Assembly (NCBI GenBank): GCA_040901445.1
Contig: JBBDYQ010000003.1
Coordinates: 1 to 49,498 of the forward strand
Reading direction: 5' to 3'
Source: Thermoleophilaceae bacterium
GTDB taxonomy: Bacteria; Actinomycetota; Thermoleophilia; Solirubrobacterales; Thermoleophilaceae
Length of the DNA stretch: 49,498 nt
How positions within the stretch are numbered: the first letter of the stretch is position 1; the number at the start of each line of letters is the position of its first letter. The notes under the pieces were generated by a model. It was not told the origin of the DNA. It did no database searches and saw only the letters and a list, made by a program, of their open reading frames with translations. Positions 1,649 to 49,498 of the stretch are shown piece after piece. Both the position numbers and the translations under genes were made by a program.

Positions 1649-1691
1649 GTCTCCGCCTGCATGTGTGACGGAGACGAGCGCTCCAGTCACA
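1649..1691 (-). promoter_or_regulatory. Riboswitch expression platform (mutually exclusive hairpins)
   Basis: Two competing hairpins can be drawn between the SAM aptamer and thrC. Hairpin A pairs GTCTCCG with CGGAGAC (1649-1655 with 1669-1675) and ends four bases before the AAAGGA ribosome-binding site. Hairpin B pairs TGTGAC with GTCACA (1686-1691 with 1664-1669), extended by GGAG/CTCC. It consumes the 3' strand of aptamer helix P1 and the arm of hairpin A. SAM binding would hold P1, free hairpin A and occlude initiation. Without SAM, hairpin B would leave the start region open. No U-tract follows, so translational control is more likely than termination. Drawn by hand; no folding energies were computed. 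Confidence 0.6.
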
Positions 1692-1811
1692 TCTTCCAGT
1701 GCCCTAGCTCGGGGCCTGATGGAATTGGCACCGTTCCCGTCGGCCAGTGGCCGATCGAGGATGGTTGCCGGGGTTTCACAGGGCCATTTCCCTCCACCCC
1801 TCTCGATGCGA
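1687..1811 (-). promoter_or_regulatory. SAM-I (S-box) riboswitch aptamer
   Basis: On the minus strand the leader shows the S-box hallmarks in order: ATCGAGAGGGGTGGAGGGA, then TGGCCCTGTGAAACCCCGGC followed by AACC, then GGTGCCAATTCC. Helix P1 can be drawn between TCGCATC (1805-1811) and GATGTGA (1687-1693), with one G-U pair. The roughly 125-base size fits SAM-I aptamers. It lies in the leader of the threonine-synthase-like gene, an atypical target, since S-boxes usually sit on methionine, cysteine or SAM genes. Confidence 0.92.
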
Positions 1812-1831
1812 GCGGTTATGTCGAACGATGA

Positions 1832-45791: not shown

Positions 45792-46064
45792 TCAGGAGTC
45801 GTACTCGCCGACGGATTCAGCCTTCACGGGCGGCCCTTGGAGTCCGGCTTCCTGGAAGATTGCCGGGACCTCAGGATCGGAGATGAACTTCTCGTAGCCC
45901 TCAATCTCCCAATCGAAGGCCACCCACACCCGGCTGGGGTCATCGGGATCGCGGAAGACCTGGGCGCCCTTGGACCCGTGCTCCTGTCTCTTCTCGGCGC
46001 CCTTGGTCGAGAAGGTCTTCAGGAACTGATCGAAGTCGGCGACCTTGGTGCTGGCGAGGATCAT
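45792..46064 (-). CDS. Small dimeric alpha/beta-barrel-like protein (ABM-like)
   Basis: A 90-residue protein: MILASTKVADFDQFLKTFST, KGAQVFRDPDDPSRVWVAFD, EIEGYEKFISDPEVPAIFQEA. The beta-alpha-beta-beta pattern and size fit the antibiotic-biosynthesis-monooxygenase/dimeric alpha-beta barrel group, but no catalytic residue is recognisable. ATG 46064 has GGGAGGAAG upstream, a good ribosome-binding site. The tRNA-like repeat begins about 80 bases upstream of it. Function unknown. Confidence 0.65.
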   Translation of the reverse strand: MILASTKVADFDQFLKTFSTKGAEKRQEHGSKGAQVFRDPDDPSRVWVAFDWEIEGYEKFISDPEVPAIFQEAGLQGPPVKAESVGEYDS

Positions 46065-46146
46065 GTTTTCTTCCTCCCTCGGGTGAGCTGTCACCGAAGC
46101 GTATGAGAAGCGACGCCAACCTCGCAGGCCAGGCCCTGGGGAATGC

Positions 46147-46278
46147 ACGCGGGGCACGATTCGAGCCTGAAGCGGCCGCATCCCGAAGGCGCGAAACACG
46201 CACAAGTGCGGCAAACAGCGGGATGGGCCGGGCTGGACTCGAACCTGCGCCCTACGGATTATGAGCTGCCGTTGGGGG
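46147..46278 (-). repeat. Direct repeat copy 1: tRNA-Met 3' half and downstream sequence (att-like)
   Basis: On the minus strand, 46224-46265 reads as the 3' half of a tRNA with CAT anticodon: anticodon loop CTCATAA, TCCGT stem side, T-arm GCAGGTTCGAGTCCAGC with one mismatch, and acceptor side GGCCCA. There is no matching 5' half. About 75 further bases downstream are shared with copy 2 (ATCCCGAAGGCGCG, GCAAACAGCGGGATGGGCC). This is what a tyrosine-recombinase attachment site looks like when crossover is in the anticodon loop. It is more diverged than copy 2. The 147 bases from 46279 to the HxlR gene show no gene. Confidence 0.75.
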
Positions 46279-46425
46279 TCACGTACATGGCAGCGACCGT
46301 TCCACCTGGACCATTTGGGACGCGAAAGGGCCCCGTCCGCCAGGAACTGTCGACGGACTCTCGCCGAGGAGGATCTGGCCGCGCCGAGGCCACGGTCGAA
46401 GGCCTGCGGTTGCTCGCGCTCTCGG

Positions 46426-47160
46426 TCATTCGGCGATCCTCACCCTGGCGGGGCCCCGAAGGCGGGCCGCCGCCCTACGGCGGTCGGGGGCCGAGCGGCT
46501 GGCGGGGGCGAACGCGCTCCACGCGAACCAGCGAGCGAAACCGCGCTGCAGCGCTCGCGGGCCGCTCATCGTCAGCTTGCCGGCCCGGATGGCAGCGCCA
46601 AGCTCAGCACGTCCCAGGTAGACGCGATAGAGGGTGGCGGTGTCCACCGCGACGTCGAGGTCGACGTCGAAGCCGGGATGCTGGAGGCAGACCGAGACCT
46701 CCGAGGGCTCGAGCACCATCCAGTAGCGCTTGGCCGGGTTGCGGAAGTTGAACTGGACCACGGTGCGGACCGCCGGAACCTCGTCGTGATCGACGTGGCG
46801 GGCCATCCAGACGATCAGGAGATCGGGATCGAGCTCCTCGGCACGCGGATCGGTGAACGACCAGGTAACCCCCCACTCGCCGAGCGCCTGAACGACCGGC
46901 TCCAGGTCGCGGCCGGCGGGGGTCAGCCGGTACCCCAGCGTCCTGCCCTTGGGGCCCGTCCGCCGCTCGATGATCTCGGCCCGCTCCAGCGCTCGGAGCC
47001 GATCGGCGAGGACCGAGCGCGAGATCCCCGGCAGGCCGCGGTGGAGCTCGTTGAACCCACTCGCGCCACCCAACATCTCGCGCACGATCAGAAGCGTCCA
47101 GCGGTCGCCGAGGACCTCACTCGCCTTTGCGATCGGGCAGTACTGCGCATAGCTCCGCAC
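46426..47160 (-). CDS. HxlR-family transcriptional regulator with C-terminal domain
   Basis: A 244-residue protein. The N-terminal HxlR winged helix starts with the characteristic Cys: QYCPIAKASEVLGDRWTLLI, then RSVLADRLRALERAEIIERR and LGYRLTPAGRDLEPVVQALG. The last 130 residues form an SCP2/sterol-carrier-like domain (VVQFNFRNPAKRYWMVLEP). HxlR proteins often sense redox or aldehyde stress and repress a divergent gene. Here the divergent gene is the FAD oxidase 104 bases away, with an inverted repeat between them. GTG 47160 follows TACGAT by nine bases. The gene pair is flanked by att-like repeats. Confidence 0.88.
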   Translation of the reverse strand: MRSYAQYCPIAKASEVLGDRWTLLIVREMLGGASGFNELHRGLPGISRSVLADRLRALERAEIIERRTGPKGRTLGYRLTPAGRDLEPVVQALGEWGVTWSFTDPRAEELDPDLLIVWMARHVDHDEVPAVRTVVQFNFRNPAKRYWMVLEPSEVSVCLQHPGFDVDLDVAVDTATLYRVYLGRAELGAAIRAGKLTMSGPRALQRGFARWFAWSAFAPASRSAPDRRRAAARLRGPARVRIAE

Positions 47161-47192
47161 GTTGAGCGCATCGTAGACCCGAATCCGGCACA

Positions 47193-47220
47193 GGTTCGAA
47201 ACTCGAACCGGTTGGTTCGG
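47193..47220. promoter_or_regulatory. Probable HxlR operator in the divergent intergenic region
   Basis: GGTTCGA (47193-47199), AAC, TCGAACC (47203-47209) is a perfect 7-bp inverted repeat, followed by a third half-site GGTTCGG (47214-47220). It sits between the HxlR regulator and the oxidase, placed to control both promoters. Confidence 0.55.
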
Positions 47221-47252
47221 ATCTCGGTCTATCCCTGCGGCCGCGCCGGGCC

Positions 47253-47258
47253 TAGCGT
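47253..47258 (+). promoter_or_regulatory. -10-like TAGCGT before the oxidase gene
   Basis: TAGCGT ends six bases before ATG 47265, just downstream of the candidate HxlR operator. Confidence 0.4.
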
Positions 47259-47264
47259 GATCGC

Positions 47265-48671
47265 ATGCTCACCGAGACAGGCATACCCGACGTAACGACC
47301 ACCGACCTGGAGCGCCTGCGCGACTCCCTCCACGGACCCCTGATCCTGCCCGGCGAGAAGAGCTACGACGAGGCGCGCTCGATCTGGAATGGCGCGATCG
47401 ACCGCCGCCCGGCCTGCGTCGCGCGCTGCACCGGCGTCGCCGATGTGGTCGCCGCGGTCCGCTTCGCGTGCAACCGCGACGTCGAGGTGTCGGTCCGATC
47501 CGGAGGACACGGCGTCGGCGGCCAAGCGCTCTGCGACGGTGGCCTCGTAATCGACCTATCGGCGATGAAGGGCATTCGGGTCGATCCCGCCCGACGCACG
47601 GCGCGCGCCGAGGCCGGTGTGCTCTGGGGCGAGCTCGACCGCGAAACGCAGCTCCTCGGCCTGGCCACCGTCGGCGGGATCGTCACCCATACCGGCATCG
47701 CTGGGCTCACTCTCGGCGGCGGGATCGGATGGCTGATGCGCAAGCACGGCGCGACCGTCGACAACCTCGTCGCCGCGGACGTCGTGACAGCCGACGGCGA
47801 GCTCTTGAGCGCAAGCGAGGAGGAGAACCCCGATCTCTTCTGGGGCATCCGCGGCGGCGGCGGCAACTTCGGGATCGTCACCTCGTTCGAGTACCGCCTG
47901 CACCCGGTCGGACCGATCGTGCTGGCGGGGCCGATCTTCCATCCGCTCGCAGACGCACCGGAGGTGCTGCGCTTCTACCGCGAGTTCATCGCCGACGCGC
48001 CCGACGAGCTCACCACGATCTTCGCCCTGCGCATGGCGCCACCCCTTCCGTTCCTGCCCGAGGAGGTGCACGGGAAGCCGATCGTGATGGTCGGGTCCTG
48101 CTACGCCGGAGCGCCCGAGGACGGCGCCGAGGTGGTGCGGCCGCTCAAGGAGTTCGGCAACCCGATCGTCGACCTGCTCGAGCCGAAGCCGTATCGGGAG
48201 CTGCAGTCGATGTTCGACCCCGGGGCGCCGCACGGCTGGCACTACTACTGGAAGTCGGTCGAGCTGCCGCCGCTCACCGACGGCGCGATCGAGACGCTCG
48301 TCGCGCAGGCCTCGAAGATCACCTCACCGCAGTCGTACTGCATCGTCTTCCAACTCGGCGGCGCCCTCGGTCGCGTGGATGAGGGCGACACCGCGTTCAG
48401 CCAGCGCGGCACCGCCCACAACGTGGGCATCGATGCGGCCTGGACCGAGGACGACCCCGAGGGGGACCGGCACATCGCCTGGGCACGGGACTTCTACGAC
48501 GCGATGCAGCCGCACGCGGGCGACCACGTGTACCTGAACTTCCTCGGCGAAGAGGGAGCCGACCGGGTGCGCCAGGCCTACGGCGCCGGCAACTACGAGC
48601 GCCTGGTCGAGCTCAAGCGCGCGTACGACCCAACCAACTTCTTCCGGCTCAACCAGAACATCGAGCCGTAG
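47265..48671 (+). CDS. FAD-binding oxidoreductase (berberine-bridge/BBE type)
   Basis: A 468-residue PCMH-fold flavoenzyme. The FAD domain has VSVRSGGHGVGGQALCDGG, with H82 the expected covalent 8-alpha His attachment, and TVGGIVTHTGIAGLTLGGGI plus LFWGIRGGGGNFGIVTSFEY. The C-terminal BBE segment ends ELKRAYDPTNFFRLNQNIEP. The usual second covalent Cys is not evident, so one linkage is likely. It probably oxidises a sugar, alcohol or alkaloid-like substrate, and produces H2O2. ATG 47265 follows TAGCGT by six bases. It is divergent from an HxlR regulator that probably controls it. Confidence 0.92.
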   Translation: MLTETGIPDVTTTDLERLRDSLHGPLILPGEKSYDEARSIWNGAIDRRPACVARCTGVADVVAAVRFACNRDVEVSVRSGGHGVGGQALCDGGLVIDLSAMKGIRVDPARRTARAEAGVLWGELDRETQLLGLATVGGIVTHTGIAGLTLGGGIGWLMRKHGATVDNLVAADVVTADGELLSASEEENPDLFWGIRGGGGNFGIVTSFEYRLHPVGPIVLAGPIFHPLADAPEVLRFYREFIADAPDELTTIFALRMAPPLPFLPEEVHGKPIVMVGSCYAGAPEDGAEVVRPLKEFGNPIVDLLEPKPYRELQSMFDPGAPHGWHYYWKSVELPPLTDGAIETLVAQASKITSPQSYCIVFQLGGALGRVDEGDTAFSQRGTAHNVGIDAAWTEDDPEGDRHIAWARDFYDAMQPHAGDHVYLNFLGEEGADRVRQAYGAGNYERLVELKRAYDPTNFFRLNQNIEP

Positions 48672-48684
48672 CGCGACTGGGGAC

Positions 48685-48815
48685 ACGCGGGAGGCGATCC
48701 GAGTCCGAAAACGGCCACATCCCGAAGGCGCGGAAACCGCACAAACGCGGCAAACAGCGGGATGGGCCGGCTGGACTCGAACCAGCGCCCTACGGATTAT
48801 GAGATGCCGTTGGGG
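48685..48815 (-). repeat. Direct repeat copy 2: tRNA-Met 3' half and downstream sequence (att-like)
   Basis: The same arrangement as copy 1, better preserved. On the minus strand 48763-48803 reads CTCATAATCCGTAGGGCGC, then T-arm GCTGG-TTCGAGT-CCAGC with a perfect stem, then GGCCCA. No 5' half is present. The downstream 75 bases match copy 1 with scattered differences and one- or two-base indels. Together the copies flank the 2.4-kb HxlR/oxidase segment in the same orientation. A complete tRNA is not present, so I do not call a tRNA gene. Confidence 0.75.
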
Positions 48816-48887
48816 CGGGCGGTTGCCCCTTGTTCCGCGAGGTTGCTGGGAGTGGCGGCGGTTCGGTGAGGGTCGTTTCGACGATTT

Positions 48888-48907
48888 GGGAACACGCTGG
48901 GGAACAC
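48888..48907 (-). other. Two GTGTTCCC direct repeats near the att-like site
   Basis: On the minus strand GTGTTCCC occurs at 48900-48907 and 48888-48895, spaced 12 bases. Short direct repeats close to an att core resemble arm-type binding sites of tyrosine integrases, but no integrase gene is visible. Confidence 0.3.
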
Positions 48908-48949
48908 TGCTTTGCCCGCCGGCTGACCCTCCGGCTCGCTGGCGATTAG

Positions 48950-49498
48950 CTATGAGCGATGACAGTCGTTGACCATTCGGCGGCTCATGCAGGGACACGG
49001 AGCGTCATCCGGTAGCGCGGTGAGGTCGGGAAACTCATCGAGCTTTCGGCAGTAGCTTGTAGCCCGGCTGAAGATCTCAGCGACGGGTTCCTTGTCGAAC
49101 CCGAATGTCTGAGCCAGCACGCGGCAGACGAAGTAGTAACCGCCGGCGCCCTGAGCCAAGGATTCCGGCCACAGCCTGTCGGGGCCGACGCGGTTGAGAT
49201 GCACCCTGCCATCGGCGCCCACGGTGACGGTCTGCCGGTAAGCGGTGGGAGAGCTATGCAGGAGGAGGTTGTTTCGACGCTGGATGACGTCGTAGACATA
49301 GTCGAGGTAGTAGCCGGCGTCGGGTTCCTCCGACCAGCGATTCTTCACGAGCTCGAAGCAGTCCTCGAAAGACGTGCGATGCCACGGTGCCTTGAACGCC
49401 CGACCCCGCCCTCCGTAGAGTTCGATCAGTCCGCTGAGCTCTTTGGAGTTCCCCCGTTTCGGTGGACACGGGTTGGTTATGCGGCCACAGCCGCGGTT
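48950..49498 (-). CDS. Unknown protein, partial at the right edge
   Basis: The frame ending at 48950 stays open to the edge of the window, giving at least 182 residues. GTG 49348 is probably an internal Val codon, because the upstream sequence (ELYGGRGRAFKAPWHRTSFE) reads as normal protein. Visible segments: NPCPPKRGNSKEL with Cys, CFELVKNRWSEEPDAGYYLD, NNLLLHSSPTAYRQTV, GAGGYYFVCRVLAQTFGFDK, and a C-terminal CPCMS. Codon use is less GC-extreme than in the housekeeping block. It lies beyond the second att-like repeat, so it may belong to an integrated element. No family recognised. Confidence 0.6.
   Translation of the reverse strand, partial: NRGCGRITNPCPPKRGNSKELSGLIELYGGRGRAFKAPWHRTSFEDCFELVKNRWSEEPDAGYYLDYVYDVIQRRNNLLLHSSPTAYRQTVTVGADGRVHLNRVGPDRLWPESLAQGAGGYYFVCRVLAQTFGFDKEPVAEIFSRATSYCRKLDEFPDLTALPDDAPCPCMSRRMVNDCHRS

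What the first reader, a model, noticed from the sequence alone, without database searches (positions are those of the whole stretch)
46147..48815. tRNA-Met 3'-half direct repeats flank a regulator/oxidase pair: cryptic integrated cassette
Two same-orientation copies of about 130 bases start in a CAT anticodon loop and run through the tRNA 3' end and 75 bases beyond. They bracket the HxlR regulator and BBE oxidase with no integrase inside. This is the pattern left by tyrosine-recombinase integration into a tRNA gene, possibly tandem or accreted insertion, and the segment may be excisable.
Basis: partly seen in the sequence, partly recalled or inferred. Interest (0 to 1): 0.6.

Follow-up and report, generated by a model that had tools for sequence, protein, structure and literature searches.

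The report
Stacked tRNA-Met integration island with remnant
Two partial copies of a tRNA gene mark the ends of old mobile-DNA insertions stacked one behind another at the same tRNA-Met gene, and the 2.5-kb piece between them (a regulator and an oxidase) is most likely a stranded remnant of one such insertion: a known, ordinary mechanism at a site that many related bacteria also use.

Summary
Two same-orientation copies (minus strand, 46277-46146 and 48815-48683, about 87% identical) carry the tRNA-Met(CAT) 3' half plus about 75 bp. The genome holds one more copy: the intact tRNA-Met on contig C22, followed directly by a tyrosine integrase and an excisionase gene. Both window copies share an 11-bp left arm (CCCCAACGGCA) that is not tRNA sequence, as expected of attR sites made by elements of one specificity. 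A related MAG (YX3bin6, Int about 70% identical) shows the simple form in one contig: tRNA-Met, integrase, excisionase, 13.4 kb, then an 88%-identical tRNA-3'-half repeat. Orphan tRNA-Met 3' halves occur in 11 of 81 genomes of the order, up to three in series; in all four same-contig cases they lie downstream of and in line with the intact tRNA. So the tandem/accreted-insertion reading is supported, and the segment is best read as a CIME-like remnant. The 75-bp extension tracks the integrase rather than the host locus, which suggests a third, older insertion left of 46146. Excision is untested. The join between the two contigs is inferred, since both end in insertion-sequence termini. The mechanism is known; I found no paper describing this site in this lineage.

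The parts
48683..48815 (-). repB: attR-like site. Element left arm CCCCAACGGCA, CTCATAA overlap (anticodon loop), tRNA-Met 3' half, about 75 bp extension
46146..46277 (-). repA: second attR-like site with the same left arm, tRNA-Met 3' half and extension
47265..48671 (+). FAD-binding/BBE oxidase gene (berberine-bridge-like), cargo between the two sites
46426..47160 (-). HxlR-type regulator with C-terminal SCP2/alkyl-sulfatase-C-like domain, cargo, divergent from the oxidase
48816..49498 (.). inner end of the outer (younger) element: lower G+C (0.63 against 0.72 for the window), with an ORF of unknown family at 48950-49498 (-) running into an IS terminus
49444..49498 (.). repeated (IS-terminus-like) sequence at the contig end; 52 bp identical to C22:1-52 and the end of C21
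45792..46064 (-). 90-aa ORF starting 82 bp beyond repA, in the place an integrase holds after the intact tRNA; homologue in 1 of 30 family relatives. Possibly the remnant of a still older insertion

Best explanation
Site-specific accretion at a tRNA-Met(CAT) gene. An older element (el1) integrated by a tyrosine integrase crossing over in the anticodon loop (CTCATAA). It restored the tRNA with its own 3' half and displaced the old 3' half to its far end (repA). It later lost its integrase. A second element with the same core specificity (el2) then integrated into the restored tRNA. El2 now supplies the intact tRNA 3' end, integrase and excisionase on contig C22, and its inner end is the right edge of the window; el1's tRNA 3' half was displaced to repB. 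The HxlR/BBE segment is what remains of el1, flanked by two attR-type sites, so it works like a cis-mobilizable element (CIME) that the neighbour's integrase could in principle excise or carry along. Shown: the repeats, the intact tRNA with int and xis, the shared left arm, the intact one-contig element in a relative, and the same serial arrangement in other relatives. Inferred: that C22's end and C3's end belong to one element, the order of events, and that the sites still recombine.
For: Three copies only, one the intact tRNA-Met, followed at once by an integrase (PF00589, 3.6e-24) and an excisionase-family gene (TIGR01764, HTH_17). repA and repB share 11 bp (CCCCAACGGCA) next to the core that the tRNA lacks. 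Int homologues of 70-73% identity lie directly 3' of tRNA-Met in two relatives, and more distant ones beside tRNA-Met, -Lys and -Thr. MAG YX3bin6 has attL and attR 13.4 kb apart on one contig, attR 88% identical over 93 bp. Orphan 3' halves are found in 11 of 81 genomes, none with the reversed-pattern control. Serial orphans share left arms in G067 (three copies) and G071 (two). In G016, G020, G004 and G035 the orphan is on the intact tRNA's contig, downstream and on the same strand. In G053 two orphans 1.6 kb apart flank an AbiEi/AbiEii pair.
Against: C22 and C3 are not physically joined in the assembly; both end in repeated (IS-terminus-like) sequence. No empty site in a syntenic relative: no genome of the same genus was available, and the flanking genes are not syntenic in family members. 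The inverted-repeat core around the window's own sites is not significant (p=0.10 and 0.55), although it is in G020, G035 and one G053 site (p<=0.003). repA and repB differ from each other by 13%, so they are old and may no longer recombine.
Confidence: 0.85

Rival explanations
1. A single complex element (for example a composite island or a phage satellite) arrived already carrying an internal att copy. The HxlR/BBE pair came in with the integrase in one event rather than as an older stranded insertion.
For: Both sites share the same left arm, and the review in PMC5704250 says transfer of whole composite elements cannot be excluded. The tools give no way to date the events.
Against: The 13% divergence between repA and repB, and the three different extensions in the three copies, fit separate events. 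The one-contig relative (YX3bin6) has only one attR.
Confidence: 0.15
2. The tRNA 3'-half copies arose by ordinary segmental duplication or gene conversion of the tRNA locus and have nothing to do with an integrase.
For: The repeats extend about 75 bp beyond the tRNA, longer than a minimal att core.
Against: The copies break off at the anticodon-loop crossover point and are joined to a shared non-tRNA arm. The integrase abuts the intact gene. The extension is shared with relatives carrying a 70-73% identical integrase (alignment scores 30-45, above each null) but not with ten tRNA-Met loci tested without such an integrase. Orphans in relatives stop at the same point.
Confidence: 0.03
3. Three insertions rather than two: repA is also an internal boundary, the DNA left of it (from the 90-aa ORF at 45792-46064) belongs to a still older element, and the true outer end is lost or beyond recognition.
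For: repA carries the integrase-linked 75-bp extension (score 72, null maximum 26), which unrelated native tRNA-Met loci lack. The 90-aa ORF has a homologue in only 1 of 30 family relatives. G067 shows three orphans in series.
Against: No further tRNA-like 3' half with the CTCATAATCC block exists in the window. Genes left of it (molybdopterin oxidoreductase, alcohol dehydrogenase-like) look ordinary, and G+C does not change. The extension could instead be native in this genus and captured by the element.
Confidence: 0.45

Closest known systems
CIME accretion (ICESt1-related elements of Streptococcus thermophilus; reviewed in PMC5704250)
   Same: Serial att sites at one target gene, with an outer element that has an integrase and an inner segment that has lost its integrase but keeps flanking att-like sites.
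   Different: Here the target is tRNA-Met with a crossover in the anticodon loop, in an actinobacterium. No relaxase or conjugation gene has been seen in the window genome's elements, and mobility is untested.
Dehalococcoides ssrA genomic islands (PMC3146451)
   Same: Many tandem islands behind one RNA gene, each closed by a 3'-end repeat. The conserved region around the repeat is longer than the repeat itself (84 bp), with a shared non-target motif upstream of each repeat. Some islands lack the integration module and were proposed to be CIMEs.
   Different: Those use a serine recombinase and tmRNA; here a tyrosine integrase and tRNA-Met.
Islander-type tRNA islands with anticodon-loop crossover (PMC4383910)
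   Same: Tyrosine integrase, restored tRNA, displaced 3' fragment in the same orientation, anticodon-centred site (2083 of 3919 catalogued islands).
   Different: Islander accepts tandem arrays only if each member has its own integrase; the middle segment here has none.

Membership tests
tRNA-targeted integrative island (tyrosine integrase) | intact tRNA gene with an integrase gene close to its 3' end | tested here: met
   C22 tRNA-Met 304774-304847, Int ORF directly downstream, PF00589 3.6e-24
tRNA-targeted integrative island (tyrosine integrase) | displaced 3' tRNA fragment in the same orientation at the far end, on the same contig | tested here: inconclusive
   Fragments found on C3, not on the same contig as the tRNA; both contigs end in repeated sequence. 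Met in relative YX3bin6
tRNA-targeted integrative island (tyrosine integrase) | empty site in a close relative | tested here: inconclusive
   no genome of the same genus among those searched; flanking genes not syntenic in family members
cis-mobilizable element (CIME) | flanked by att-type sites on both sides | tested here: met
   repA and repB, same core and same left arm
cis-mobilizable element (CIME) | no integration or transfer genes inside | tested here: met
   only HxlR and BBE ORFs with family matches between the repeats
cis-mobilizable element (CIME) | derived by decay of an ICE or IME | tested here: inconclusive
   no integrase or transfer gene remnant recognised in the 2.4 kb; origin from an ICE, IME or phage cannot be told
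cis-mobilizable element (CIME) | sites still recombine (excision or accretion shown) | not testable with these tools
   needs PCR or reads
integrative conjugative or mobilizable element (el2) | relaxase or conjugation genes | not testable with these tools
   el2's interior is not assembled next to int; a TrwC relaxase is seen in the comparable element of G067

The most novel reading that the evidence does not exclude
tRNA-Met(CAT) is a lineage-wide accretion hot spot in this order (Solirubrobacterales-like, Thermoleophilia), where several unrelated integrases keep stacking elements and leaving small integrase-less cassettes (HxlR/oxidase here, AbiE in G053, a helicase in G067) that behave as a loadable array of mobilizable cassettes.
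Probability: 0.35. Interest if true: 0.45.

Novelty: new member of a known kind. Interest (0 to 1): 0.32.

Why it matters
It shows how small metabolic or defence cassettes without any mobility gene of their own come to be fixed next to a tRNA in a little-studied actinobacterial class, and gives a simple search (orphan tRNA-Met 3' halves) for more. The anchoring sites name the boundaries of accessory DNA that ordinary annotation misses, since no tRNA finder calls them.

Tried and rejected
Dispersed repeat: rejected, three copies in the genome. Complete tRNA genes at the repeats: rejected. Known RNA family at the repeats: Rfam finds only a SAM riboswitch at 1686-1812. Phage origin: the integrase has only distant phage relatives (at most 33% over 59%), one 25% match in viral contigs, and the tRNA-half sequence is absent there. 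Joining C3 and C22 through shared contig-end repeats: both ends fall in IS-type termini, C3 shared with C21 and C22's start, C22's end shared with C18, so no unique join. Further tRNA 3' halves in the window: none. A symmetric core at the window's own sites: not significant. HxlR/BBE as a conserved pair in relatives: not seen. The automatic 'FULL' flag for one G053 site is a false match to its upstream sequence; the alignment shows it is an orphan.

Full report
The observation. Two direct repeats lie at 46146-46277 (repA) and 48683-48815 (repB), both reading on the minus strand, 87% identical over 132 bp. Their alignment score of 180 far exceeds the shuffled maximum of 28. Read 5' to 3' each is: an 11-bp arm CCCCAACGGCA, one variable base, CTCATAA (the anticodon loop, CAT), the tRNA 3' half to GGCCCA, then about 75 bp. 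Neither is a tRNA gene. Between them lie an HxlR-type regulator and an FAD/BBE oxidase, divergently transcribed, and no integrase. The one refinement is that the shared block begins 11-12 bp before the anticodon loop with bases that are not tRNA.

The intact partner. A whole-genome search with repB finds, besides the two window copies, one further strong match: an intact tRNA-Met(CAT) at C22:304774-304847. The same 75 bp follow it, then a tyrosine integrase (PF00589, E 3.6e-24) and, on the opposite strand, a short excisionase-family gene (HTH_17; TIGR01764). This is the expected attL of an element that has restored the tRNA with its own 3' half. The window is the whole of contig C3, whose right end (49444-49498) is a 52-bp repeat also found at two other contig ends, one of them (C21) a contig carrying an istA/istB-like IS21-type pair. 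C22's right end is likewise a repeated terminus, shared with C18. The interior of the element is therefore not assembled, and the join C22-C3 is inferred.

Relatives. Integrases 70-73% identical lie directly 3' of tRNA-Met in G123 and G124, and more distant ones sit beside tRNA-Met, tRNA-Lys or tRNA-Thr. G123's contig C7 has the same length (44531) as JAUJPF010000028.1, MAG Solirubrobacteraceae bacterium YX3bin6, so I take them to be the same record. In it the tRNA-Met, integrase, HTH_17 gene and other genes (including a CHAT-domain protein) are closed 13.4 kb away by a tRNA-3'-half copy, 88% identical over 93 bp. That is the unstacked form of the same kind of element in one contig.

Serial copies. 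A pattern search over 81 genomes (the window's and 80 relatives) for the 3' half, and another for the 5' half, gives orphan 3' halves in 11 genomes (G000, G001, G004, G016, G019, G020, G035, G053, G067, G071, G075); the reversed-pattern control finds none (sequences). Where the intact tRNA is on the same contig (G004, G016, G020, G035) the orphan is downstream and on the same strand in every case. G067 has three orphans in series (5.5 and 2.1 kb apart) and G071 two (1.2 kb apart), each series with nearly identical non-tRNA left arms, as in the window. Cargo differs: in G053 two orphans 1.6 kb apart enclose an AbiEi/AbiEii pair, in G067 a 1026-aa ResIII/DEAD helicase, and G067's tRNA-proximal element carries a TrwC relaxase.

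How many events. The window needs at least two insertions: el1, whose remnant is the HxlR/BBE segment and whose arrival made repA, and el2, whose arrival made repB and whose integrase is on C22. The 75-bp extension behind the tRNA is shared by all three copies in this genome and by the loci of the 70-73% identical integrases (scores 30-45, each above its null). It is not shared by ten tRNA-Met loci tested without such an integrase; an eleventh, L096, which has a more distant integrase, is borderline. It therefore looks element-derived. Since repA carries it too, a third and older insertion to the left is a real possibility (about 0.45), although no further tRNA fragment is in the window.

Mechanism. 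The anatomy is that of tyrosine-integrase crossover in the anticodon loop, the commoner of the two classes in the Islander catalogue (2083 of 3919 islands, PMC4383910). Accretion with an integrase-less member is the route described for CIMEs (PMC5704250) and for Dehalococcoides ssrA islands, where the conserved region likewise exceeds the repeat and a non-target motif precedes each repeat (PMC3146451). Not shown: excision, circular forms, an empty site, or which kind of element el1 was. A symmetric core is significant at three relatives' sites (p<=0.003) but not at the window's own.

The segment is accessory. Only 2 of 30 family relatives have an HxlR homologue at E<=1e-40. BBE oxidases are common in the family, but none of the 14 other loci examined has this HxlR within the stretch held, about 1.5 kb on each side.

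Verdict. Supported, ordinary in mechanism, and new as a site description in this lineage as far as the two literature searches show (no relevant paper). Interest is modest.

Noticed in passing
L122:9910-9951 (G035:C1:1135409-1135450) and L121:614-573 (G053:C24): Orphan 5' halves of tRNA-Met that break off at or just after the anticodon loop and are followed by hairpin-like sequence (in G035 CCCCGCTCCGAAAGCGGGG); in G053 no intact copy was matched by the two half patterns. Split tRNA genes not restored by the insertion, or deletion scars.
   Followed up: partly
L120:9544-11123 (G053:C4): AbiEi/AbiEii defence or toxin-antitoxin pair between two tRNA-Met 3'-half repeats, with a distant tyrosine integrase just outside.
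   Followed up: partly
L130 (G067:C116) and L131 (G067:C137): Three serial tRNA-Met 3'-half repeats with integrase-less segments (one with a 1026-aa helicase), and a tRNA-proximal element with integrase, excisionase-like gene and TrwC relaxase.
   Followed up: partly
L127:2060-6078 (G020:C122): A 4-kb element between intact tRNA-Met and an orphan 3' half whose integrase lies at the far end, next to the orphan, rather than next to the tRNA.
   Followed up: no
L123:6998-8542 (G000:C23): A second integrase (38-44% identical) with a closely related excisionase (79%) beside tRNA-Arg(ACG) in the same genome.
   Followed up: no
L124 (C21), L149 (C18), C23 start: Short contigs carrying related istA/istB-like IS21-type genes sit at assembly breaks; C3, C22 and C21 share a 52-bp terminus.
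   Followed up: partly
window 1686-1812 (-): SAM riboswitch (RF00162, 76.7 bits).
   Followed up: no
window 48950-49498 (-): ORF of unknown family ending in a CxC...CHxS-like cysteine motif, running into the repeated sequence at the contig end.
   Followed up: no
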